Positions 7,295 to 60,986 of a stretch of DNA of 64,000 bases are shown piece after piece. This stretch comes from a bacterium (lineage in GTDB: Bacteria; Vulcanimicrobiota; JABDET01). The stretch lies in the NCBI GenBank assembly GCA_021817145.1, contig JAKAVV010000001.1, forward strand, positions 62,001 through 126,000. Reading direction: 5' to 3'. Below the pieces are notes generated by a model that did no database searches, had not been told where the DNA came from, and saw nothing but the letters and a program-made list of their open reading frames with translations. A program made the position numbers and the translations under genes. Each line of letters starts with the position of its first letter. Position 1 is the first letter of the stretch.

Positions 7295-9854
7295 AACTTT
7301 TCCAGCGCCTCAACCCTCTTTTACTCCTCTCCTGGATCAATATTTTGATTTAAAAAAAAAGTGCTCTGATTCTCTGCTTTTATTCAGAGTCGGAGACTTT
7401 TACGAGGCTTATGGTGAAGATGGGGAAAGATTAAGTTCTGCCCTTGATATTGTTTTAACAGGTAAAGAGGTTCGAGGCGTTCGAGTTCCAATGGCTGGTT
7501 TTCCTTATCATACCCTTGACAATCATTTAAAAACTCTGCTTACTCAAGGATATAAAGTGGCGGTCTCAGAACAGATGGAAGATGCTTCTCGAAGCTCAGG
7601 ATTGATTGAGCGGAATATCGTGCGTTTTTTGACCCCAGGGACCATCCTTGAAGGGGATTTGTTAAATGAAAAAGAGTTTAATTTTATTTTAGCGATTTTC
7701 CCGGATGGGAAAGAAATAGGATTATCCTGGGCTGATGTTTCAACTGGGGATTGGAAGGCAGCTGTTATTCCTGAAGATAAAGCTCTTTTCTTTCAGGAAT
7801 TTCTAAAGATTTCCCCTAAAGAGGTTCTTCTTCCCGAAAACTTTTTTCGTAAAGATTGGTTCCAGGAGGAATCCGTAAAACTCTCTTTTTTCCCGTTTGA
7901 ATCATCCCTTGAGCAGCAGCAGGGATATTCACATCTGCCTGTTTCAGCCCAAAAAGCCTGTTTGTTCTTAAAGAGATATTTCCAGGAAATTTACAGGGGA
8001 AATCTTCCCAAGCTGCAGATTCCCGTTTTTCATCCGATACATCAATATATGGTTCTGGATCCAGCGGCTTGTCGAAATTTAGAACTGCTCGAGAATTTAT
8101 CTGCAGGAGGAAAAGAGGGGAGTCTGCTGCATCTTCTGGATCAAACGAAAACTCCGATGGGCGGGAGACTGCTGCGTCAGTGGCTTCTCTATCCTCTTCT
8201 GGATTTAAAAGAGATTGCGTACCGCCAGGATGCTGTAGAAGAGCTCTTGAAACAGTCTTTTCTGCTGGCAGATTTGCAAAATTCTTTATCCCGTATTGGG
8301 GATTTGGAGCGCATTTTATCCCGTGTTTTATTCCAAACAGCGAATGCGAGAGATTTACTTTCCATGAAGGTAATTTTGCAGGAGATTCCGCTTCTAATTC
8401 GTCTGCTTGCGTCCTGCCAGGCTCCGGCTCATCAAAAGTTTCTTCTGGAAATGCCTGATTTTTCTTCTTTGACAGTTTTGCTCGAAAAAGGGATCTCTTC
8501 TGATCCTCCTCTGAGTTTAAAAGAGGGGGGATTGATCAAAGAAGGGTTTCATCCTGAACTGGATGTTTTAAAAAAAGATTTAAAAGAGGCGGTAAACTGG
8601 ATCGCTGAATTGGAAGAAAAAGAGAGAAAAGAAACAGGAATTAAGTCTTTAAGAGTCGGTTTTAATCAGGTTTTTGGCTATTATCTTGAAGTTACAAAAT
8701 CAAATTTGTCTCTGGTTCCTTCTCGCTATATCAGGAAACAAACTCTTGCCAATGCGGAGCGGTATGTGACAGAAGAGTTGAAAAAGCAAGAAGCGCGAAT
8801 TTTATCGCTTCAAGAAAGAGTCAAATTTCTGGAATATGAAATTTTCTGCGAAATCCGCGGTGAAGTAAAAAAACAGGATGAAGCTCTCAAGAAAGGGGCG
8901 AATTTACTTGCCCAGCTTGACTGTTTTGTCAGTTTTGCTTTTCTAGCTCTTCATTATCGTTTTACTCGACCTGTTGTGGATGATGGGGATCTTCTCAGCA
9001 TTTCCGCAGGACGTCATCCTGTTGTTGAGTCTTTCTCTAAGGAGCCATTTATCCCTAATGATGTTTGTCTTTATCCAGAGGCTCGCCTTTTTGTGATTAC
9101 AGGACCGAATATGGCGGGAAAGTCCACTTTTCTGCGCCAAACCGCTTTAATCGTGATTCTTGCTCAGATGGGGAGTTTTGTTCCTGCTGACGCGGCTCAA
9201 ATTGGCGCCCTGGACAGGATTTTTACTCGGATTGGATCGTCTGATGATCTTCACCATGGGGAATCCACTTTTTTTGTTGAAATGAAGGAATGCGCTGAAA
9301 TTTTGAGAAATGCTGGGGAAAAAAGTATGGTTTTGCTGGATGAAGTGGGTAGAGGGACAGGCACTTATGATGGATTGAGTTTAGCCTGGGCTGTATCAGA
9401 AGCTCTTTTGAGAACAGAAGCTAAAGTTCTTTTTGCCACTCATTATCATGAAATGACTGATCTGGCCGATCTTTATCCTGCTGTAAAGAATTTTACAGTT
9501 GCTGTTGAAGAGAGAGGAGATGAACTAATTTTTTTAAGAAAAATTTTACCAGGTTCGTCTAATAAAAGTTATGGAATTCAAGTGGCTCGTCTTGCTGGCA
9601 TTCCTGAATCTGTTGTTAAAAGAGCGGGAGAGATCCTTGTTTCCCTTGAAACTCAGAGCCCTTCGAAATCTCGGAGTTTTTCAACTCGCCGCGCTTTTTC
9701 TATTCCTTCTTCCAGCTCTGTTCAGCTGCATCTTTTTTCTTGCGACCAGCATCCTGTTTTAGAGCGATTGAGAACTTTGGATCTCAATCACATCACTGCT
9801 ATAGAAGCTTTAAATTTGCTAGATCGGTGGAAAAAGGAGTATTGTAAAGAATGA
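7278..9854 (+). CDS. mutS: DNA mismatch repair protein MutS
   Basis: LLFRVGDFYEAYGEDG mismatch-recognition motif; GPNMAGKSTFLRQTALIVILAQMGSFVPA Walker A; start moved to 7278. Confidence 0.97.
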   Translation: MKSSPETFPAPQPSFTPLLDQYFDLKKKCSDSLLLFRVGDFYEAYGEDGERLSSALDIVLTGKEVRGVRVPMAGFPYHTLDNHLKTLLTQGYKVAVSEQMEDASRSSGLIERNIVRFLTPGTILEGDLLNEKEFNFILAIFPDGKEIGLSWADVSTGDWKAAVIPEDKALFFQEFLKISPKEVLLPENFFRKDWFQEESVKLSFFPFESSLEQQQGYSHLPVSAQKACLFLKRYFQEIYRGNLPKLQIPVFHPIHQYMVLDPAACRNLELLENLSAGGKEGSLLHLLDQTKTPMGGRLLRQWLLYPLLDLKEIAYRQDAVEELLKQSFLLADLQNSLSRIGDLERILSRVLFQTANARDLLSMKVILQEIPLLIRLLASCQAPAHQKFLLEMPDFSSLTVLLEKGISSDPPLSLKEGGLIKEGFHPELDVLKKDLKEAVNWIAELEEKERKETGIKSLRVGFNQVFGYYLEVTKSNLSLVPSRYIRKQTLANAERYVTEELKKQEARILSLQERVKFLEYEIFCEIRGEVKKQDEALKKGANLLAQLDCFVSFAFLALHYRFTRPVVDDGDLLSISAGRHPVVESFSKEPFIPNDVCLYPEARLFVITGPNMAGKSTFLRQTALIVILAQMGSFVPADAAQIGALDRIFTRIGSSDDLHHGESTFFVEMKECAEILRNAGEKSMVLLDEVGRGTGTYDGLSLAWAVSEALLRTEAKVLFATHYHEMTDLADLYPAVKNFTVAVEERGDELIFLRKILPGSSNKSYGIQVARLAGIPESVVKRAGEILVSLETQSPSKSRSFSTRRAFSIPSSSSVQLHLFSCDQHPVLERLRTLDLNHITAIEALNLLDRWKKEYCKE

Positions 9855-11347
9855 AGAGTTCCCGATTCCAATCTCTGCATCTGGTTTTGAGAATGATGAC
9901 TCTGTGCTTTTTGATTTGGGGAATTATGTCAGGTAAAGCATTTTTCTTTGATCAAGTCCTTCCCTGGAAGATTCCCGCTTTTATTGCTGCTGGATACATC
10001 TTATTATCTGCTGCTCTGCTGCTCTGGTTTTTTAAATTTGCTTTTTTGGAGCCTGTTTTAATTTTTTTAGATTTTTTGGCAGGGTTTTTCTTTTTGTTTT
10101 TGTACAAGGGTTCTTTGTTTTTTTCGTTTCCATTTTTTCTTGCCACTTATACCGCAGGGGGGATTTCATGGGGAGCATCCCTTTTTTCAGCTCTGGGGGG
10201 AACTGTCTTTTTTGCTTTAATGAATTTCTATTTTAAAGGAGCGATTTCTCCTGTTCTGCGAGATCCATCCTGGTTGTTTGTTCTTGCATTGAGTTCAGCT
10301 ATTTCAAGCCTGGGTCTGTTTAAAGCCGCTTCTCAGGAGCAGGAGAAAAAAATGGATGCCCTGATTTCTTTAATTGAAGCAGGGCAGCAGCTGGGCTCGA
10401 CATTAACTTATGAGCATGTGTTTCAACTGACGTTTACGATGACCAAAAATCTATTTAACGCATCAACCACTGCTGTTTATTTAAAAGACAGCGATGAGAT
10501 TATGAAGGTTCGGGCGATTGAATCCCCTTATGCAAAAATGTTTTCTGATTTTGATCCAAAATCCGCAAAAACGATCTTAGGGAAATTGATTCATCAAAAA
10601 ACGTCTGAAATCATTCCTGATCTGGAACAGATTCCTGAATCAGAAGAACAGGTTCTTCCACGAACCGCTCGATCTCTTCGTTCCTGCATGACTGTTCCTC
10701 TTATATTCGAAACAGAAGTCATAGGGCTTTTGTTTGTTGGCTCTTCTGCGCCGCGCGTGTATAATGGAGAATCTTTAAAATTATTTTCAGTTCTGGCCAA
10801 TCAAGCTGCTATTTCTCTCCGAAATGTTCAGCTTCACGAAAAAACAGCAACAATGGCGATCACAGACAGTGTTTCAGGACTTTATACTCATGGGTACATG
10901 CAGGAAGCTTTAGAACGGGAATTTCGCCGCTGTAAATACAATAATCTTCCTTTATCAACGATTATTTTAGATGTGGATCATTTTAAAGTCGTGAATGACA
11001 CTTATGGCCATCCACAAGGGGATGCCTTGCTCCGTCAGTTAGGAGCTGTGATTAAAACTGTAACAAGGGCTTCTGATATTGTGTGCCGATATGGTGGAGA
11101 TGAATTTATGATTATTCTGCCTGAAACCAATCGGATTGGAGCTGTCCTGGTGGCAGAAAGAGTCAGGCAAACTGTTGAGGAATATGAGTTCGTTTTAGGC
11201 TCAAAAATTGTGCATATCACGATCAGCGGAGGGGTTGCCAGTTTTCCTGAGGATATTGAGACGAAAAAAGATTTGATTGATAAAACGGATCAGGCTCTTT
11301 ATAAGTCTAAACAGAGCGGAAGGAATAAGATTTCTTTCAACTCATGA
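9851..11347 (+). CDS. Membrane GAF-GGDEF diguanylate cyclase
   Basis: Multiple N-terminal TM segments, GAF-like region, GGDEF domain with RYGGDEF and upstream RASD (I-site RxxD). Confidence 0.9.
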   Translation: MKSSRFQSLHLVLRMMTLCFLIWGIMSGKAFFFDQVLPWKIPAFIAAGYILLSAALLLWFFKFAFLEPVLIFLDFLAGFFFLFLYKGSLFFSFPFFLATYTAGGISWGASLFSALGGTVFFALMNFYFKGAISPVLRDPSWLFVLALSSAISSLGLFKAASQEQEKKMDALISLIEAGQQLGSTLTYEHVFQLTFTMTKNLFNASTTAVYLKDSDEIMKVRAIESPYAKMFSDFDPKSAKTILGKLIHQKTSEIIPDLEQIPESEEQVLPRTARSLRSCMTVPLIFETEVIGLLFVGSSAPRVYNGESLKLFSVLANQAAISLRNVQLHEKTATMAITDSVSGLYTHGYMQEALEREFRRCKYNNLPLSTIILDVDHFKVVNDTYGHPQGDALLRQLGAVIKTVTRASDIVCRYGGDEFMIILPETNRIGAVLVAERVRQTVEEYEFVLGSKIVHITISGGVASFPEDIETKKDLIDKTDQALYKSKQSGRNKISFNS

Positions 11348-13103: not shown

Positions 13104-13985
13104 TTAAGCATAAGCGAAGGCTTGGGCTGTGGCATTTGCCGCCATTTCTCTGTGAGTCGCATTCTCTGTAGCAGGAGCTGGCCGTTCATAATTGTTCATG
13201 AAGTATGCTGCAGCAGCTGCTGGGGAACTCGCATGAGCATTGATATCTGCGACTGATCCATTTTGACCGATATATTTCATGACAGCATTCAATTGGAATC
13301 CGAGATCTCGCTGAGGATTTCCTGTTACAGCGCCTGCGAGCGGAGGCGTCCATCCAATTAATCCGTTTCCTCCACTTCCAACGCTTTCAGGATTTCCTCC
13401 TGATTCCTGGGCAATATTCCCAATAATGCCGGCAGCAGCATTATGCGAAAGCCCATGCGAAGTAAAGAAATTATACATAGCCTTAGCATTCTGTGGAACC
13501 TGTCCATTAGCTGATGTTAGGGGACCAACACTGCTGCCTCCTGCTCCTTGTGAAGATCCAGCATTTCCTCCACCGCCGTATCCACCTCCGCCAACTGGGC
13601 TTCCACCGCCGTATCCACCTCCGCCGACAGGATTTCCACCGCCGTATCCACCTCCGCCGATAGGGCTTCCACCGCCGTATCCACCTCCGCCAACAGGGTT
13701 TACCCCACCATATCCTCCTGCGCTTCCTCCAGGAGTTCCTCCGTTCTGTCCCATTTGTTGTAATAACATGGTTAATTCAAGTAAAATCATTTCTAGTTCT
13801 GCATTAAGCTGAGCTGGATTTGAGGAGGAATTTGAGCTCTGTGGCCCTCCTAATGGATTGGAATAAGAACCTTCTGAACTGCTTGAACAGCATGATCCGC
13901 TGGATCCAAGAGTTTGAGAAGGGTATTGGAATTCTGGGTTTATTAACCCACTGCTGCTGAAACCATTCCCTATATTATTGAACAT
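13104..13985 (-). CDS. Gly-rich tandem-repeat protein with C-terminal phage-tail-lysozyme-like domain
   Basis: GGGGYGGG[SN]P[VI] 11-aa repeats; C-term AKAMYNFFTSHGLSHNAAAGIIGNIAQESGGNPESVG resembles phage tail lysozyme domains. Confidence 0.75.
   Translation of the reverse strand: MFNNIGNGFSSSGLINPEFQYPSQTLGSSGSCCSSSSEGSYSNPLGGPQSSNSSSNPAQLNAELEMILLELTMLLQQMGQNGGTPGGSAGGYGGVNPVGGGGYGGGSPIGGGGYGGGNPVGGGGYGGGSPVGGGGYGGGGNAGSSQGAGGSSVGPLTSANGQVPQNAKAMYNFFTSHGLSHNAAAGIIGNIAQESGGNPESVGSGGNGLIGWTPPLAGAVTGNPQRDLGFQLNAVMKYIGQNGSVADINAHASSPAAAAAYFMNNYERPAPATENATHREMAANATAQAFAYA
13570..13713 (-). repeat. 33-bp in-frame tandem repeat (about 4 units) encoding GGGGYGGGxPV
   Basis: ccaccgccgtatccacctccgcc repeated with small variation on the + strand. 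Confidence 0.85.
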
Positions 13986-14160: not shown

Positions 14161-16212
14161 ATGAAAAAAATGATTTTTTTATTGGCAGCTTTTGTTTCAT
14201 TTTTTTCTTTTTTAAAAGCAGTTCCTTTTTTCTCGCCAAACAGAATAAAAACAGTTGTATTGTACAGTGATTATACAGAAAAACATAAGCCAGATCCGAT
14301 CTTTTTTGATTGGGAGATGAAAGGGGTTCTGCAGACATTAAATTCTCTTCACGTGTCCTATAAAGTTCTGCATGATTCCCAGTTTAATTTAAAGACTCTT
14401 AAGTCTTACCGCCTGTTAATTCTCCCTGATACCATGGATATGACTAAAAAAGAGGTTCTAGCCGTGAAATCTTTTGTTAAAAATGGAGGGAAAGTTTTGG
14501 CGACAGAATTTGCGTCTTTGCGAAACAAAAAGGATCAATCAGCTTCTGGATCTGATGATTTTCAATTAGCATCTTTGTTTGGGGTTGATTTTCTGAGTTA
14601 TAACGCCGATCCTCCTGAAGCAGGTTGTTTGAAATTGGTAAAAAAATTAGGCGGAACGATTCTTCAATTAGGAAGAAATCATGCAGTTTATGTTCAAACC
14701 CAGAGAGGGGATCGAATCCTTGCCCACTGGGTAAATGACAATAAAAAAACCTTTAGTCTCCCTAAGAGATTGGATGCTGCTCTTGTGGAAAATAAACAGA
14801 AAACAGCGATCTATTCAGGAGAAGATCTATTCAATCCGCAAAACTCAAATAGTCAGATTATACAGGAACTTATCGCTGATTTAATGAACCATTTAGTTCC
14901 AGGAGTCGCTCGATTTGCATCTAAATTTACAGGTGTTTATCCTCATCTTCCTTATCTTGGATATTTCCCGGAAATTCAAGGATCTGAGCGGAAAATTCAA
15001 GTCGGATTTCCTTATTCTATCCGTTCAGGATATATTACGTGCGATGCTCCTTTTTATATTGAGAACGGTAAAAAAGAGGTTTTTTTTAACGCCCGCTCAA
15101 ACTGGAAAATCGCTTTTCAGGCTGTTCCTCATGGATTCATGGTTTCAGGCAGGGATGGATCCCGTTTTTATTTTGTTCCATCGAATCCAGCTTTCCCTTT
15201 AAAAGTGGTTTTGTGGCATGGAGATCGGATTCCTGACAGCGCTTTTAAATTCTTAGCGGTGAGAGGATCTCTCATTTTAAAAGATTTGCATGGAAAAAGG
15301 GTTTTGGTGAATGCTCTGCCGTTAAAAGATTACCTGGCAGGAGTCATTCCTCATGAGGTTCCATTTTATTTTTCTAAACAAGCTCTTGAGACAATGGCTG
15401 TTGTGGCTCGGACTTTTGCTTTGAGAGAGATAGAGAAAAGAAAATTTAAAGGATATGATATCTGTTCAACTCCTCTGTGTCAGACGTACAGCGGGTTGGC
15501 TTATGAGTCAGCTTCATCTAGAAATGCTGTTTCCGCGACACAAGGAAAAGTTCTTGTTTATCATGGAAAACTAGCTTATCTTCCTTATTTTTCCACCTGT
15601 GGAGGAATCACAGAAGCGATTCAAAATGTATGGAACGTTCCTCCTGTGCCTTATCTTAAATCCATTGTGGATGGACCTGAACCTATTCGAGAAAATTTGA
15701 GCGCAAGCCAAGGAGTAAAACAGTTTCTGCTCCGTCCCCCTGATAGTTACTGCAAAAATTCGAGCCGGTTTCGCTGGAAACAAACTTATTCTGTTAATGA
15801 ACTGGAATCTTTGTTTAGACGATCTCTTCCTCTTCTTTTAAAAAGAAAAGTGAAATTAGGCATTATTAAAGGATTGAAAGTGCTGCAGCGATCTACTGCG
15901 GGAAGAGTTATGGATCTTCAAATTAAAACCAGTCATGGAGTTTATAATGTTTATAAAGATAAGATTCGATGGCTTTTCAGTGAGGGAGAGGTTGGACTTG
16001 GGGGGCTCCCAAGCACGTTGTTCGTGATGAAAGAAAATCGAGGGATCCATGGTTTGCTTCGTTCTGTTACTTTCATTGGTGGTGGATGGGGTCATGGAGT
16101 TGGACTTTGTCAATATGGAGCGGAAGGAATGGCACAAAAGGGGTTCTCTTATCAAAAGATTCTTCAGCATTATTATCCAGGAACAAATCTTGTAAATGAA
16201 ACATGGCCATGA
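14161..16212 (+). CDS. Secreted SpoIID/LytB-domain protein with N-terminal amidotransferase-like domain
   Basis: Signal peptide; N-term RLLILPDTMDMTKKEVLAVKSFVKNGGKVLATE; SpoIID motif METMAVVARTFALREIEKRKFKGYDICSTPLCQTYSG...CGGITEA; GWGHGVGLCQYGAEGMA. Confidence 0.85.
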   Translation: MKKMIFLLAAFVSFFSFLKAVPFFSPNRIKTVVLYSDYTEKHKPDPIFFDWEMKGVLQTLNSLHVSYKVLHDSQFNLKTLKSYRLLILPDTMDMTKKEVLAVKSFVKNGGKVLATEFASLRNKKDQSASGSDDFQLASLFGVDFLSYNADPPEAGCLKLVKKLGGTILQLGRNHAVYVQTQRGDRILAHWVNDNKKTFSLPKRLDAALVENKQKTAIYSGEDLFNPQNSNSQIIQELIADLMNHLVPGVARFASKFTGVYPHLPYLGYFPEIQGSERKIQVGFPYSIRSGYITCDAPFYIENGKKEVFFNARSNWKIAFQAVPHGFMVSGRDGSRFYFVPSNPAFPLKVVLWHGDRIPDSAFKFLAVRGSLILKDLHGKRVLVNALPLKDYLAGVIPHEVPFYFSKQALETMAVVARTFALREIEKRKFKGYDICSTPLCQTYSGLAYESASSRNAVSATQGKVLVYHGKLAYLPYFSTCGGITEAIQNVWNVPPVPYLKSIVDGPEPIRENLSASQGVKQFLLRPPDSYCKNSSRFRWKQTYSVNELESLFRRSLPLLLKRKVKLGIIKGLKVLQRSTAGRVMDLQIKTSHGVYNVYKDKIRWLFSEGEVGLGGLPSTLFVMKENRGIHGLLRSVTFIGGGWGHGVGLCQYGAEGMAQKGFSYQKILQHYYPGTNLVNETWP

Positions 16213-17081
16213 AGCGGATGGTTTTTTCAAAAACGAGAATAAACTTGGCAAGATCCTTTTATTTTTCGGGCGAGGAAGCGCTGAAAATTCAAAAAAAGAT
16301 GGGTATTTCTGCTGCAGACTTGTTGAGAAAATTAGCTTATGTGGTTTCTCAACAAGGGATTGCTCCTATTTCTCATTATCAAGTAGGAGCAGCTGTTCTT
16401 GGAAAAAGCGGGAATATTTATCTAGGAGTTAATCTGGAATTCCCTGGTGTTCCTTTAAATCAAACCATTCATGCTGAGCAGTTTGCTGTTATCAATGCAT
16501 TTAATCACGGGGAGAGAGGTATAACTTTTCTAGCTGTTACTGCCCCTCCTTGCGGATGCTGCAGACAGTGGGTCTCTGAAATCGGGGATGACTCTTCTAA
16601 ATTAAAAGTTTTGATTTCCAGAGAAAGAGTTATTCCTTTTATTCGTCTTCTTCCCCATTCATTTGAGCCATTTGTTCAGGGAACACGAAAAGGCTTTTTA
16701 TCTCCCCAAAATAATGGATTAAAATTTGCTGATAAACTTTCTCCTCGGGGAGGTTTTGATAAAGAGCTGTGGTCTGCAGCTTTGCGCGCTGTTAATGCCT
16801 CTTATGCCCCTTACTCAAAAGCCTTCTCAGGAATTGCTTTAAGGGCAGAGAATGGGAAAATTTATATGGGAAGCTATATCGAGAATGCAGCTTTTAATCC
16901 AACTCTTTCCCCTTTGCAAACAGCTTTGATAGCCCTTGTGTCTGATGGGCAGTCTTTGGGAAAAATTAAGAAAGTCTTACTGCTGGAAAGAAAAGGGGCT
17001 CTTATTAGTCAAGAATCTCAGATTAGAGATTCTTTGAAAAGAAACGCTTCTCAAGCGATTTTCATCCCCCTTTTCTTTTAA
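16203..17081 (+). CDS. cdd: Cytidine deaminase (two-domain, E. coli type)
   Basis: ISHYQVGAAVLG...NQTIHAEQFAVINA...PPCGCCRQWVSEI plus second degenerate deaminase domain. Confidence 0.88.
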   Translation: MAMKRMVFSKTRINLARSFYFSGEEALKIQKKMGISAADLLRKLAYVVSQQGIAPISHYQVGAAVLGKSGNIYLGVNLEFPGVPLNQTIHAEQFAVINAFNHGERGITFLAVTAPPCGCCRQWVSEIGDDSSKLKVLISRERVIPFIRLLPHSFEPFVQGTRKGFLSPQNNGLKFADKLSPRGGFDKELWSAALRAVNASYAPYSKAFSGIALRAENGKIYMGSYIENAAFNPTLSPLQTALIALVSDGQSLGKIKKVLLLERKGALISQESQIRDSLKRNASQAIFIPLFF

Positions 17082-17131: not shown

Positions 17132-17160
17132 TTGAACTGCGAATCTCTTTTCGTTATACT
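17132..17160 (+). promoter_or_regulatory. Putative sigma70-type promoter for the kinase-like triplet
   Basis: TTGAAC-N17-TATACT read directly; about 80 bp upstream of the GTG at 17241 that has an aaggagga RBS. Confidence 0.6.
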
Positions 17161-17240: not shown

Positions 17241-18143
17241 GTGAATTCAGTCGAGCTTTTGCGCGTTTATCCACTTAACCAGCCAGCTGCGGGTCAGAAG
17301 GCTCATTTGAAAGGGAGAAATGGCGCTGAAAAAGCAAGGGGAGAAGATGGGAATATTTATGTGTTTAAATCCCCTCAATACGGTAGAAAAGGGAATCCTT
17401 TGACCTCTTCAGAAGTGAATGAAGCGATTGCGAAAGAGGTTGTGGCTTCCCATATTTTGATTGATGGATTTAAGCTGCAAGGGGTTCCTTATCAGGAGGG
17501 GCTTGTCCAGAAAAAAGAGGGTCATCTTGAAAAAGCTGTCATCTGCCCTTATATCCCTGAGCTTTCTACACTTTGTGAAACTTCAATTAAGAAAATCAAG
17601 AATCCGGATGAAGCTGTTGCTCAGTCTATTGTAAAGGGTTGGATAGGGGAATGGGGAACCATTCTTAATAACAGCAATGTTTTCGTAAAAAAAGATGGAA
17701 CTGTTCTAGCAGGGGATTTTGGAGAGGCTTTTCGGAAAGGGATCAGTTTTCGGCCCATTCCAGTCGCTCTTTTTAAAGGGTTCCCAAAAGCTAACTTTAC
17801 CATCATGAATCATTACGCTAATTCTTCTAATGTTAAAGACGTATCAAAAAAAATTAAAAAATTATCTGATGATGAGATTCGCGGAATGGTTCACCAATAT
17901 GGAACTCAATACACTTCTTTTTGGAATCAAAAGTTAGAAGATCGATTGACACAGGTTTTAATTCAGAATAGGGATGAATTAAAGAAGAAAAATATATTTG
18001 AGAATTTTTATAAAGGGTTTCATCCGATGATTACACCGCCATTCAGTTCTCTGATAGGATTTGTCAGTCTTTATGTCAGAACTCCTCTAGCCCATGCTGT
18101 TCGTATTTTTGAAAATTATCTTCCGAAAGGAGCGCTGCGATGA
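17241..18143 (+). CDS. Putative atypical kinase-fold protein, tandem paralog 1
   Basis: Shared core AEKARGEDGNIYVFKSP...EVNEAIAKEVVASHI...EKAVICPYIPELSTL...GEWGTILNNSNVFVKKDGTVLAGDFG; kinase-like Lys/Glu/Asn/DFG-like spacing. Confidence 0.6.
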   Translation: MNSVELLRVYPLNQPAAGQKAHLKGRNGAEKARGEDGNIYVFKSPQYGRKGNPLTSSEVNEAIAKEVVASHILIDGFKLQGVPYQEGLVQKKEGHLEKAVICPYIPELSTLCETSIKKIKNPDEAVAQSIVKGWIGEWGTILNNSNVFVKKDGTVLAGDFGEAFRKGISFRPIPVALFKGFPKANFTIMNHYANSSNVKDVSKKIKKLSDDEIRGMVHQYGTQYTSFWNQKLEDRLTQVLIQNRDELKKKNIFENFYKGFHPMITPPFSSLIGFVSLYVRTPLAHAVRIFENYLPKGALR

Positions 18144-19033
18144 ATCTTTTGCGTGTTTATCCTTTAAACCAGAAAGCTGCGAATTCAAATGCTCGATGGA
18201 GTGGAGCCAATGGAGCTGAAAAGGCAAAGGGAGAAGATGGAAATCTCTATGTCGTTAAATCGCCTCGATATGGAAGGAATCATCATCTTTTGACCTCTTC
18301 AGAAGTGAATGAAACGATTGCGAAAGAGGTTGTGGCTTCCCATATCTTGGCAGATGAATTTAAACTGCCTGGGATTCCTTATCAGGAGGGGATTTCTCAG
18401 AGAGAAGATTCTCCCCCTGAAAAAGCGGTGATCTGCCCTTATGTTCCTGATCTTTCGACTCTTTGGGAAACTTCAGCAAAAAAGATTAAGAACCCGGATG
18501 AAGCGGTGGCTCAGTCTGTTGTCAGGGGCTGGTTGGGGGATCCCGATACAATTATTAATAACAGCAATATTTTTATAAAAAAAGATGGAACCGTTTTATC
18601 GGGAGATTATGGGCTTGCTTTTCAGAGAGGGATTCGTTATAAAATTGCTCCACATCTACCTGGAAAAGGAGCGCCAAAAGCCAGTCTGGCAATTATGAAT
18701 GAGTATGCCTCTCCTTCAAATGTTGAACCTGTATCGGAAAAAATCAAACATTTATCTGATGAGGAGATTCGGGGAATGGTTCACAAATACGGGACTGAAT
18801 ACACTTCATTTTGGGATTCAAAATTAGAAGACCAGTTCACCCAGATTTTGATTCAGAATCGGGATGAACTGGCTGCAAAAAATGTCTTTGAGAATTTTTA
18901 TAAGGGATTTCATCCGTTTATTACGCCACCCATTAGTATTGCGATAGGGGCTGTTGTTCCTCATATTGGTCTTCCACTTGCCCAGGCTTTTCGCGTATTT
19001 CATGATCATCTTCCAAAAGGGTTGAGAAAATGA
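18140..19033 (+). CDS. Putative atypical kinase-fold protein, tandem paralog 2
   Basis: EKAKGEDGNLYVVKSP...VICPYVPDLSTLWE...GDPDTIINNSNIFIKKDGTVLSGDYG; ATGA overlap with paralog 1. Confidence 0.6.
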   Translation: MNLLRVYPLNQKAANSNARWSGANGAEKAKGEDGNLYVVKSPRYGRNHHLLTSSEVNETIAKEVVASHILADEFKLPGIPYQEGISQREDSPPEKAVICPYVPDLSTLWETSAKKIKNPDEAVAQSVVRGWLGDPDTIINNSNIFIKKDGTVLSGDYGLAFQRGIRYKIAPHLPGKGAPKASLAIMNEYASPSNVEPVSEKIKHLSDEEIRGMVHKYGTEYTSFWDSKLEDQFTQILIQNRDELAAKNVFENFYKGFHPFITPPISIAIGAVVPHIGLPLAQAFRVFHDHLPKGLRK

Positions 19034-19896
19034 AACCTCTGCAAGTTTATCCTCTCCATCAACCTGCTGCTGGCGCAAAAGCTCATTTTTCGGGAGCTCA
19101 TCATGCTGAAAAAGCAAAAGGTGAGGACGGGAATTTGTACGTTGTAAAACAGTATGGAAAAGGGGATCACAAAACTCCTTTTGAAGTGAATGAAGCGATT
19201 GCGAAGGAGGTTGTGGCTTCCCATATTGTTGTGGATAAATTTAAACTGCCTGGGATTCCTTATCAGGAAGGGACGGTTTACGGTGAGAGTGGAAAACTTG
19301 AAAAAGCGGTGATTTGCCCTTATGTTCCTGATCTTTCAACTCTTTGGGAAACATCGGCTAAAAAAATCAAGAATCCGGATGAAGCGGTGGCTCAATGTGT
19401 TGTTAGGGGGTGGCTTGGAGATTGGGATATAATCATTAATAACAGCAATATTTTTGTTGCGAAAGACGGGAGTGTTTTGGCAGGGGATTTTGGGCAAGGT
19501 TTTAATCGTGGGATTTCTACACGTGAAATCTTGATCCCATCGATAAAGAAGATCCCAAAAGCGAACCTGACGATCATGGGAAGATACGCAAAACCCACCA
19601 ATGTCAGACCTGTTGTTGAAAAAATAAAAAATTTATCAGATGAAGAGATACAAGGGATGGTTCATCAATATGGGGAACAATACGTTCAAGAATGGAATTC
19701 TGATCTGGAAAGTAAATTTACGAAAATTTTAACTGAAAATCGGGATAAACTGGCAGAGAAAGATCTGTTTGAGAAGTTTTATAAAGGATTCCATCCGATG
19801 ATTACCCCACCTATCAGCAGATTATTAACCGCTGCGGCCGGGAGTTTTTTCTTTCCTTTTGCTCAACTGATTCGGCATGCTATTTCTCGAATTTGA
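19030..19896 (+). CDS. Putative atypical kinase-fold protein, tandem paralog 3
   Basis: EKAKGEDGNLYVVKQYG...VICPYVPDLSTLWE...GDWDIIINNSNIFVAKDGSVLAGDFG; ATGA overlap with paralog 2. Confidence 0.6.
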   Translation: MKPLQVYPLHQPAAGAKAHFSGAHHAEKAKGEDGNLYVVKQYGKGDHKTPFEVNEAIAKEVVASHIVVDKFKLPGIPYQEGTVYGESGKLEKAVICPYVPDLSTLWETSAKKIKNPDEAVAQCVVRGWLGDWDIIINNSNIFVAKDGSVLAGDFGQGFNRGISTREILIPSIKKIPKANLTIMGRYAKPTNVRPVVEKIKNLSDEEIQGMVHQYGEQYVQEWNSDLESKFTKILTENRDKLAEKDLFEKFYKGFHPMITPPISRLLTAAAGSFFFPFAQLIRHAISRI

Positions 19897-55748: not shown

Positions 55749-56857
55749 ATGGGCAAACTTAATGAGAATCAAAAAATAGTGACTCGGGACATTTTGTTTT
55801 TTTTAAGTGAGAAAGCAGTGATTTATCTTGTTTTTATACTTGCTCTTTTTGCTTTTGCTGTTTTTTGCGCTTTGTACTGTCAGAAGTCAGCCTCAACCCT
55901 CAAGCTGAAAGCCCGACTAAAGCGATTCCCGTATTTCCCAACCCCAATTTGAATCAAGCGTTTCGCAATGCTGTATGGGAAGGGAATTTGCAGTTAATAA
56001 AACAGCTCTTAAAAAAGGGGGCTGATATTAACCATCAAGGATCTTATGGGGCAGGAGAAATGACCCCTTTGGCCACTGCTGTCAAATGGAGGCATTTTAG
56101 AGTGGTGAAATATTTAGTTTCTCATGGAGCAGACGTCAATGAGCCTTCTTTTATTGGGTATACTCCTTTGGAAATAGCTGTCAAATATAAAAATTTAAGA
56201 TGTGTGAAGTATTTAGTTTCTCATGGAGCAGAGATTAATCTAAAAGATTCGTATGGGAATTTTCCTCTCAGCTATGCAGCTCGAAAAGGGGAGTTAAGGA
56301 TAGTAAGGTTTTTAGTTTCTCATGGAGCAGAGATTAGTCTAAAGGATTCTTATGGTGAGACTGCTTTGGGTGAAGCTTTGTTTTACCATCATCTTCGCGT
56401 TGTGAAATATCTTTTGTCTTATGGACCCAAGTGGAGGGAGAAAACAACCCTTCTTTCCTATTCAGCAGCAGTTCATTATCCTGATGAATATATTGGACAG
56501 AAGATAAATTGGAGTGGATCAGTGGTAAGTATTGATACAGGTAAAGGGTTTTTAGAAGTGCTCAGGGGCAACTCATTATACCCATTGATCGTATTTTATA
56601 AAGGATACTGCTCGACCAGCAAGTTAGCAAAAAGAGGTATTAAAGATGGCGTCAAAATTAGAATTTTTGGCGTTTTTGAGGGGTTGACCTCTAATCCTTC
56701 TGTAAAGGTAAAAGCGATTCAGATTGAACGGCTGAAAACAGGTAACCCTGGTGGGCGAAAGAGGCGAACCCGCGTGGCTCACGATTTGGTAAAAAGTAAT
56801 AGTTTTTGGATGCTTTTACATGGCAAGCAGTGGAGGATGTTGAAGGTTCCTCGCTAA
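55749..56857 (+). pseudogene. Ankyrin-repeat protein, frame-split from its N-terminal signal/TM segment; C-terminal OB-fold-like region
   Basis: 55749 ORF supplies SEKAVIYLVFILALFAFAVF; ORF at 55865 supplies repeats VVKYLVSHGADVNEPSFIGYTPLEIAVKYKNLRC. One extra T in the T6 tract at 55861-55866 would join them. Confidence 0.65.
56748..56764. repeat. 17-bp copy of tRNA-Val 3' end (putative attachment-site remnant, distal)
   Basis: ctggtgggcgaaagagg identical to 61055-61071. Confidence 0.7.
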
Positions 56858-56874
56858 TCTTGCATGTCATAAGA

Positions 56875-57705
56875 ATGAATTTGAGTGAATGGTTTAGGGT
56901 GTCACCTGACGTTATGAGCAGTCAGGTCACGAGTTTGACCTGGAAGCCCTCTCCTTACCCTCGGCCTGGAGGGAGTTCCGGGGCCTTTGAGGTTGAAGCA
57001 TCCGAGGGGGATTATAGGGCACTGCTTAAGCCCGGCAGGCCTGATCCTCAATCTTTGCCTCGGTGTCAGGCTGCTGTGGAAAGAATCGCTTTCGTTTTGG
57101 GAAACCGTCTTGACCTCCCCATTCCACCAGTCCAGTTGACCAAAGGCTTTCCCCCGGCAGTGGCTGACTGGCCTTGCTGCATCGCATTTAAGCCAAAGGG
57201 AGCCGTGTGGACATGGGGATATTTACAGGCAAAGGGCGCACTGTCAGCTCTTGATAAGAATTTGTTTCAGGAAGGCGCAAGGATTGTTCCATTTCATATC
57301 TGGATAGATGCCCATGACCGCGCAAACCAGGGGAATATCCTTTATGTCGAAAATCCCGAATCTGGGGAATCCCGGTTCTTCTTTATCGACCACTCCACCA
57401 GCATGTTGGGGGCCGAGCAGGTGGGACATAAGCACTGGCGGGAGGGCCGTCCTCTGGAGTTCGTCCAATGTGCGGTTTTCGCTCAGTTTTTGGAACAAAT
57501 TTCCTCTCTCACAGCGTCCAAAACCATAGACAAAATCGCCAATTTGAGTGATAATGAGATTAGAGAGGCCGTTTTATCCATTCCGGAGGAGTTCCTTACA
57601 AGTGAGGAGAAATGCCTTACCATAGAGGGGCTTCTACAACGGAAGGGGAAGATTCGGGAGCTTGTAAAAAGGTGGTTTGAGAATTATGGGAAATCGTATG
57701 ACTAG
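56875..57705 (+). CDS. HipA-like atypical kinase domain protein
   Basis: YRALLKPG...VERIAFVLGNRLDLPIPPVQL...FHIWIDAHDRANQGNILYV...FFFIDHSTSML; start set at ATG 56875. Confidence 0.7.
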   Translation: MNLSEWFRVSPDVMSSQVTSLTWKPSPYPRPGGSSGAFEVEASEGDYRALLKPGRPDPQSLPRCQAAVERIAFVLGNRLDLPIPPVQLTKGFPPAVADWPCCIAFKPKGAVWTWGYLQAKGALSALDKNLFQEGARIVPFHIWIDAHDRANQGNILYVENPESGESRFFFIDHSTSMLGAEQVGHKHWREGRPLEFVQCAVFAQFLEQISSLTASKTIDKIANLSDNEIREAVLSIPEEFLTSEEKCLTIEGLLQRKGKIRELVKRWFENYGKSYD

Positions 57706-58119: not shown

Positions 58120-58167
58120 CTGGTGGGCGAAAGAGGACTTGAACCTCTGACCTCCTGAATGTAAGTC
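58120..58167. repeat. 48-bp perfect copy of the tRNA-Val 3' half (putative attachment site)
   Basis: ctggtgggcgaaagaggacttgaacctctgacctcctgaatgtaagtc identical to 61055-61102. Confidence 0.93.
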
Positions 58168-58303
58168 CAATGTGCCACTTTTTGCCCCTTTTTAGTTTCG
58201 TTGAGTTTGTTCAGTATTTATAGGGGTTTAAGCCACTTTTCAAGTGAAGGTCAGTTTGTCCATTTTTACCCCTTTTTGGACTCATCCGTTAGAAAGCTTA
58301 ATT

Positions 58304-59842: not shown

Positions 59843-60823
59843 TTAGGGTTTTGGTCTTTCCCAGAGCACACGTCCTGATTTGCGAAACAACACAATCGAA
59901 TTAGCCCTGCGGTGTTCAGTCGCTCCTGAGCTTATATACTGCAAATTAACAGATCCTAAATCAAGAAGATTTTTCCCGTCTGCGCTGTCCATCTGCAGGG
60001 TAGGTCTTCCATTTGAATGAAGAAAAAGGAAAGCACGAAGGGTTCCTTTGGCATCGTACATCTCCAAGTCTGGGCTTCCATGCTGACCAAGCAAAAACAT
60101 AGCACGGGGGTTTCCTTTGGCATCGTCCATCCCTAACATTGGGCTTCCATGCTGACCAAGGGAAAACATAGCACGGGGGTTTCCTTTGGCATCGAGCATC
60201 CCTAACATTGGGCTTCCATGCTTAGTAAGAAAAAACTTAACACGGGGGTTTCCTTTGGCATCGTCCATCCCTAACATTGGGCTTCCATGCTTAGTAAGAA
60301 AAAACTTAACACGGGGGTTTCCTTTGGCATCGTCCATATCCAAGTGTGGGCTTCCATGCTGACCAAGCAAAAGGAAAGCACGGGGGTTTCCTTTGGCATC
60401 GTCCATCCCTAACATTGGGCTTCCATGCTTAGTAAGGGCAAGTGCAGCACGGGGGGTTCCTTTGGCATCGTCCATCCCTAAGTCTGGGCTTCCATGCTGA
60501 CCAAGGGCAAGTGCAGCACGAAGGGTTCCTTTGGCATCGGACATCCCTAACATTGGGCTTCCATGCTTAGTAAGAAAAAGGAAAGCACGGGGGGTTCCTT
60601 TGGCATCGAACATATCCAAGTGTGGGCTTCCATTACGAATACCAAAAGACCCTCTGGTTTTCCCCTTAGAATCAACGAGGCGGAACTCTTGCGCTGAGAT
60701 GACTTTTCTTTGGTCTGCTGCAAAGACTGGTTTCCCATAAAGGAAAGTAGTCATGACAGCCCCTCCCAGAAATCCTGAAATCATCAGAACTAATAATCCT
60801 CCTAAATACTGCTTGGTGTTCAT
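59843..60823 (-). CDS. Membrane-anchored/exported protein with about ten 23-aa tandem repeats
   Basis: N-terminal hydrophobic segment; HGSPMLGMDDAKGNPRAxFxLxx repeated; start set at ATG 60823. Confidence 0.85.
   Translation of the reverse strand: MNTKQYLGGLLVLMISGFLGGAVMTTFLYGKPVFAADQRKVISAQEFRLVDSKGKTRGSFGIRNGSPHLDMFDAKGTPRAFLFLTKHGSPMLGMSDAKGTLRAALALGQHGSPDLGMDDAKGTPRAALALTKHGSPMLGMDDAKGNPRAFLLLGQHGSPHLDMDDAKGNPRVKFFLTKHGSPMLGMDDAKGNPRVKFFLTKHGSPMLGMLDAKGNPRAMFSLGQHGSPMLGMDDAKGNPRAMFLLGQHGSPDLEMYDAKGTLRAFLFLHSNGRPTLQMDSADGKNLLDLGSVNLQYISSGATEHRRANSIVLFRKSGRVLWERPKP
59950..60634 (-). repeat. 69-bp coding tandem repeat array (about 10 units)
   Basis: gggcttccatgct[gacc/tagt]aag... cctttggcatcgtccat repeated every 69 bp. 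Confidence 0.9.
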
Positions 60824-60986
60824 CGTTTCATCACTCCTTTTTTTAATTATTCTGAGTAACAGCATGGATCTTTCGTTCTTCTTTAATTTATCTCGAATGT
60901 TAGGTTTCCCTGCTCTAAAGACACCGAAGTTTGCTGTGGTACAAATTTGATGAGATTTTTAATAATTTTTTCATTCTCTGGGAAAT

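What the first reader, a model, noticed from the sequence alone, without database searches (positions are those of the whole stretch)
17241..19896. Tandem, translationally coupled triplet of divergent kinase-fold proteins upstream of rpsB
Seen: three adjacent 288-300-aa ORFs joined by ATGA overlaps, with a shared core: L[RQ]VYPL[NH]Q.AA..., GEDGN[LI]YV.K, EVNE.IAKEVVASHI, EKAVICPY[VI]P[DE]LSTL, NNSN[IV]F[VI].KDG[TS]VL.GD[FY]G, LSD[DE]EI.GMVH.YG and FYKGFHP.ITPP. Inference: the invariant Lys, Glu, hinge-like VICPY, Asn and GDFG order fits the HipA/PI4K-type atypical kinase fold, but the catalytic loop is not a standard one. A candidate promoter (17132-17160) sits upstream of the first gene. A triplicated kinase-like operon abutting the rpsB-tsf operon is the best candidate here for an undescribed system; substrate and role are unknown.
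Basis: partly seen in the sequence, partly recalled or inferred. Interest (0 to 1): 0.75.

Follow-up and report, generated by a model that had tools for sequence, protein, structure and literature searches.

The report
Tandem PI4-kinase-like proteins, one lacking Asp
Three side-by-side, co-translated copies of a previously unnamed bacterial protein have a kinase-like fold related to PI3/PI4 kinases; the first copy has lost the proposed catalytic aspartate in both known species, which suggests two working kinases and one inactive partner, but what they act on is unknown.

Summary
Three adjacent genes (17241-18143, 18140-19033, 19030-19896) encode 300/297/288-aa paralogues, 61-67% identical, joined by ATGA overlaps. 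No Pfam, NCBIfam, PADLOC or PHROGs family names them. AlphaFold models (pTM 0.83) match only kinases in Foldseek's listed PDB hits. A family profile matches PF00454 (PI3/PI4-kinase) proteins of the same phylum (hhalign score 60; 40 column shuffles at most 22; unrelated proteins at most 18). HipA does not match above shuffle level. So the kinase-fold reading is right, on the PI4K side rather than HipA. Lys40, Asn143, Asp156 and Gly158 are invariant in 18 members. The aligned catalytic Asp is present in 16 of 18; only paralogue 1 of the window and of its sister species has Gly (GEWG). A tree puts the triplication and one Asp loss before the species split, and orthologue dN/dS is 0.08-0.15, so paralogue 1 looks like a retained pseudokinase. 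A fourth, complete copy lies elsewhere. The promoter's -10 element and spacing are conserved. The rpsB neighbourhood is not: the sister genus lacks the triplet there. The family is sparse (10 of 149 phylum genomes). Best reading: a genus-level kinase/pseudokinase operon. Substrate, complex formation and activity are untested.

The parts
17132..17160 (+). Candidate sigma-70 promoter TTGAAC-17-TATACT upstream of paralogue 1
   Evidence: Pattern scan; -10 TATACT, spacing and an upstream AATTGGTAACATTTTTTTAATTGAA block conserved in the sister species, where the -35 reads TTGAAT
17241..18143 (+). Paralogue 1 (P1), 300 aa, PI3/PI4-kinase-like fold; aligned catalytic Asp replaced (GEWG): candidate pseudokinase
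   Evidence: AlphaFold pTM 0.83; Foldseek kinases
18140..19033 (+). Paralogue 2 (P2), 297 aa, complete motif set K40, E63, D136, N143, D156, G158
   Evidence: AlphaFold pTM 0.83; Foldseek kinases
19030..19896 (+). Paralogue 3 (P3), 288 aa, complete motif set
18140..18143 (+). ATGA start/stop overlap P1/P2 (GTGA in sister species)
19030..19033 (+). ATGA start/stop overlap P2/P3 (TAATG in sister species)

Best explanation
The triplet is a genus-level operon of a new, divergent bacterial branch of the protein-kinase-like superfamily on the PI3/PI4-kinase side. P2 and P3 keep every residue expected for binding Mg-ATP and transferring phosphate (Lys40, Glu63, Asp136, Asn143, Asp156). P1 keeps the ATP- and metal-site residues but lost the catalytic Asp before the two species split and has stayed under purifying selection. 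The three are made from one promoter with coupled translation, and I infer that they assemble: P1 as pseudokinase scaffold or allosteric partner, P2/P3 as phosphotransferases acting on an endogenous protein or a membrane lipid. Shown here: gene structure, conservation, ancestry, motif states. Supported by prediction: fold and PI4K-type kinship. Inferred: activity, complex formation, substrate.
For: Predicted fold: AlphaFold pLDDT 83.8 and pTM 0.83 for P2, 84.3 and 0.83 for P1; the 50 PDB hits listed for each are kinases, out of 523 and 248 chains at E<=0.001; among the listed P2 hits PI4KIIalpha and VPS34 have the highest TM (0.45, 0.42). Kinship: hhalign prob 93.3%, score 60.4 against PF00454-positive proteins of the phylum, aligning the Lys, catalytic Asp, Asn and DxG; controls at most 22.3. 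Viral structures: several hits named PI3/PI4-kinase. Motif table over 18 members. Tree: ((W1,S1),(W2,S2)),(W3,S3), then W4/S4, each branch at least 98/97. dN/dS for P1, P2, P3 orthologues 0.149, 0.092, 0.083. Conserved -10, spacing and coupling.
Against: Global TM-scores are low (at most 0.45), so the exact subfamily rests mainly on sequence motifs. No ATP binding, activity or interaction has been measured. In P1 the neighbouring D134 is Glu, which could in principle act instead, and SelO-type enzymes work without the usual Asp, so 'pseudokinase' is a sequence inference. No partner gene is conserved beside the family across the phylum.
Confidence: 0.5

Rival explanations
1. All three are active, interchangeable kinases kept for dosage, with no division of labour; P1 uses Glu134 or an altered chemistry such as AMP transfer.
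For: All ATP- and metal-site residues (K, E, N, D, G) are kept in P1; W1/W2 have lower dS (0.71) than the W1/S1 and W2/S2 orthologues (1.16, 1.39), as partial gene conversion would give.
Against: The copies are 61-67% identical and each has its own orthologue in the sister species; GEWG is kept in both species' P1 and in no other member.
Confidence: 0.22
2. They are lipid kinases of PI4K type acting at the membrane, anchored by the hydrophobic C-terminal tail.
For: Nearest characterised folds and profiles are PI4KII/VPS34 and PF00454; the last ~30 residues of the tandem copies are hydrophobic (19-residue maximum 1.16-1.62).
Against: The tail is below or at the edge of a typical transmembrane score and poorly modelled; kinase-like folds of this type include enzymes of other activity; no inositol-lipid genes were looked for.
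Confidence: 0.2
3. They are effectors or toxins delivered to other cells.
For: PF00454 relatives in the same genome (L062, and L061 in the sister) carry long low-complexity N-terminal halves like secreted polymorphic proteins; the window has a Gly-rich phage-lysozyme-type protein.
Against: The triplet has no leader, fusion partner or immunity-like neighbour; it lies among housekeeping genes and shows strong purifying selection.
Confidence: 0.1
4. A HipA-type toxin-antitoxin module.
For: The kinase fold and tandem coupled genes recall split HipA (HipBST) modules (PMC9325769).
Against: The HipA profile match is at shuffle level (20.2 against 19.2); the gene upstream is a cytidine deaminase 159 nt away, not a HipB-like regulator; each copy is a full kinase domain, not a split one; a separate HipA exists in the genome.
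Confidence: 0.04
5. A translation-linked regulator tied to the rpsB-tsf operon.
For: P3 ends 62 nt before rpsB with no terminator-like site found between; the arrangement is kept in the sister species.
Against: The sister genus G002 and the other phylum genomes where the gene upstream of rpsB could be read have other genes or none there; the fourth copy lies beside unrelated genes.
Confidence: 0.06

Closest known systems
PF00454 PI3_PI4_kinase-type bacterial proteins (same phylum; L054, L056, L061, L062, L059, L063)
   Same: Kinase fold with V.K lysine, catalytic Asp, Asn and D.G in the same order; hhalign prob 93%
   Different: No PF00454 hit for the triplet itself; catalytic loop two residues longer; GD[FY]G instead of IDHG/IDNG; triplet is short and tandem; P1 lacks the Asp
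Eukaryotic PI4-kinase type II (PDB 4hne)
   Same: Highest listed TM-score in Foldseek for P2 (0.45); DR..NDNW-like catalytic loop
   Different: 14% identity, TM below 0.5; no palmitoylation motif was looked for; substrate unknown
HipA / HipBST kinases (PF07804)
   Same: Kinase-like superfamily; co-encoded neighbouring genes
   Different: No significant profile match; no HipB or HipS-like partner
Bacterial pseudokinases (review PMC12599244) and Legionella novel kinase-like families (PMC9758233)
   Same: Bacterial kinase-like proteins, some with lost catalytic residues, missing from standard family libraries
   Different: The reviewed pseudokinase families are Ser/Thr-kinase-type; in the passages read, none is a tandem of one degenerate and two complete PI4K-like copies

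Membership tests
Protein-kinase-like (PKL) superfamily | N-lobe sheet with Lys-Glu pair, C-lobe with catalytic loop and DFG-like motif | tested here: met
   AlphaFold + Foldseek; motif table
Protein-kinase-like (PKL) superfamily | Catalytic Asp in the catalytic loop | tested here: inconclusive
   Met in P2, P3 and 14 other members; not met in P1 and its sister orthologue
PF00454 PI3/PI4 kinase | Score above the curated Pfam cut-off | tested here: not met
   No PF00454 hit even at E<=10 or in longer relatives at E<=1
PF00454 PI3/PI4 kinase | Profile-profile homology to PF00454 members | tested here: met
   hhalign 93.3%, score 60.4, controls at most 22.3
PF00454 PI3/PI4 kinase | Lipid (or protein) phosphorylation | not testable with these tools
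   Needs purified protein
HipA (PF07804) | HipA_C profile match | tested here: not met
   No hit in Pfam; hhalign at shuffle level
HipA (PF07804) | Adjacent HipB-like antitoxin | tested here: not met
   Upstream gene is a cytidine deaminase, downstream rpsB
Known anti-phage defence systems | PADLOC model match | tested here: not met
   No hits for the triplet

The most novel reading that the evidence does not exclude
A previously unnamed bacterial PI4K-like kinase family has evolved an obligate three-subunit enzyme, one pseudokinase plus two distinct active kinases from one translationally coupled operon, comparable in logic to eukaryotic kinase/pseudokinase pairs.
Probability: 0.3. Interest if true: 0.62.

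Novelty: new variant of a known kind. Interest (0 to 1): 0.45.

Why it matters
Bacterial PI3/PI4-kinase-like and pseudokinase proteins are poorly characterised and often missed by family libraries. A compact operon with one degenerate and two complete copies, kept under selection in two species, would be a clean system for asking how a pseudokinase arises by duplication and what it does for its active partners. A longer branch of the same family sits directly after ftsW in cell-wall clusters of three related genomes, which offers a functional lead.

Tried and rejected
Pfam, NCBIfam, PADLOC and PHROGs scans gave nothing usable; weak AraA_central, DpsA and LegK7 hits are below cut-off and discarded. 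PDB sequence search gave only a NEK1 match at the DFG stretch and weaker kinase matches there. Plasmid and phage tblastn: no match. The viral-contig scans failed four times because the machine gave no answer, so presence in viruses by sequence is untested there. The single genome-contig scan was made with one sequence and finds close relatives only, so the family outside this phylum is untested. HipA affinity rejected. A role linked to rpsB rejected on synteny. Recent horizontal gain not supported: GC 0.41 and GC3 match the neighbours.

Full report
WHAT IS THERE. Three genes on the + strand at 17241-18143, 18140-19033 and 19030-19896 encode proteins of 300, 297 and 288 aa. Their junctions are ATGA overlaps. 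Pairwise identities are 61-67%. They lie between a dimeric-type cytidine deaminase (16203-17081) and rpsB (19959). A fourth copy (49% identical to P2) lies on another contig between a UDP-sugar dehydrogenase-like gene and a rarA-like ATPase gene (names by eye). The sister species (L005/G001) has the same triplet in the same place and the fourth copy too, with coupled junctions GTGA and TAATG.

EXPRESSION. By itself that is nothing. Its -10, its spacing and an upstream block are conserved in the sister species while the surrounding sequence has diverged, which makes it credible. No terminator-like site was found between P3 and rpsB.

FOLD. AlphaFold models from alignments of the family reach pTM 0.83 for P2 and P1. 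The 50 PDB hits listed for each are kinases. TM-scores over the whole chain are low; PI4KIIalpha (0.45) and VPS34 (0.42) are the best listed for P2. In the viral library several hits are annotated PI3/PI4-kinase, though the top hits are large phage proteins annotated otherwise. The fold assignment is therefore solid, the placement among kinases less so from structure alone.

KINSHIP. The same genus has proteins above the Pfam cut-off for PF00454, PI3/PI4 kinase. A profile of 18 members of the present family against six PF00454-positive proteins of the phylum gives hhalign probability 93.3% and score 60.4, with the Lys, catalytic Asp, Asn and D-x-G aligned. Forty column shuffles reach at most 22.3, the reversed profile 15.0, and seven unrelated protein pairs from the window at most 18.3. 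A HipA profile built from the same phylum scores 20.2 against a shuffle maximum of 19.2. So 'PI4K-type' is supported and 'HipA' is not. The triplet itself is not a PF00454 member by Pfam's own threshold.

ACTIVE SITE. In P2 numbering Lys40, Gly133, Asn143, Asp156 and Gly158 are invariant in 18 members. Glu63 is Glu in 14 and Gln in 4. Asp136, aligned with the catalytic Asp, is Asp in 16 and Gly in two: P1 and its sister-species orthologue. The loop from this Asp to Asn143 is two residues longer than in the PF00454 proteins; the most distant member (L019) has the usual length. P1 is therefore a candidate pseudokinase that lacks one catalytic residue. Its neighbour Asp134 is Glu in P1, so residual or different chemistry is not excluded.

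HISTORY. The tree groups each paralogue with its orthologue (bootstrap/SH-aLRT 100/97 to 100/99), P1 with P2, then P3, then the fourth copy. The triplication and the single Asp loss predate the split of the two species. dN/dS between orthologues is 0.149 for P1, 0.092 for P2, 0.083 for P3 and 0.111 for the fourth copy, in the range of ordinary genes here (0.018-0.276). dS is high (above 1), so these ratios are rough. W1 and W2 share lower dS (0.71), suggesting some gene conversion.

DISTRIBUTION. Of 149 phylum genomes held, 10 have a match at 1e-6, most of them single longer proteins. The sister genus has a different gene upstream of rpsB, but that genome is 67% complete. In three genomes of another family (G016, G038, G044) the longer member lies directly after ftsW, in G038 and G044 visibly within the mraY-murD-ftsW cluster. 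In G010 it overlaps the end of a SecA gene. No neighbour is conserved across the family. The phylum is not named by the tools; a same-phylum genome of one 3.5-Mb contig (G009) resembles Vulcanimicrobium alpinus (3,508,363 bp, PMC9758169), so Eremiobacterota is my guess only.

HOW IT PROBABLY WORKS. P2 and P3 bind Mg-ATP and transfer a phosphate; P1 binds nucleotide and regulates or scaffolds them; coupled translation keeps them in proportion. The first two clauses rest on conserved residues and predicted fold, the last on gene structure. Substrate is unknown. Pseudokinases as regulators of active kinases, and bacterial pseudokinases in general, are described in PMC10870513 and PMC12599244.

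LIMITS. Nothing biochemical was done. The collection scans of viral contigs failed, and genomes outside the phylum were searched once with a single sequence. The profile comparison depends on alignments of modest depth (effective number 2.6-3.6).

Noticed in passing
L048:7985-9223, L046:about 8950-9900 (minus), L099 (G044), L052:1442-2662: Longer single-copy family members of one phylum family lie directly after ftsW in three genomes (mraY-murD-ftsW cluster in G038 and G044); in a fourth (L052) murG and murC follow nearby. A cell-wall link for that branch is possible.
   Followed up: partly
G000:C34 (L062) and G001:C29 (L061): PF00454-positive proteins with ~300-residue low-complexity N-terminal halves that look like secreted or polymorphic proteins.
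   Followed up: partly
window 56806-57705 (+): A 299-aa HipA_2-like kinase ORF (Pfam E 0.001, below cut-off; phrog_3162 E 3e-10) next to an ankyrin-repeat protein (55865-56857).
   Followed up: partly
window 13104-13985 (-): Gly-rich protein with a C-terminal Phage_lysozyme2 domain (E 5e-21).
   Followed up: no
window 59843-60865 (-): Protein made of repeated units resembling 'GSPMLGMDDAKGNPRA'.
   Followed up: no
window 58124-58187 (-): Rfam tRNA hit of 35.8 bits that ARAGORN did not report; possible degenerate tRNA.
   Followed up: no
L041:3601-6561 (-): SecA with an N-terminal extension of about 165 residues whose gene overlaps the following family member in G010.
   Followed up: partly
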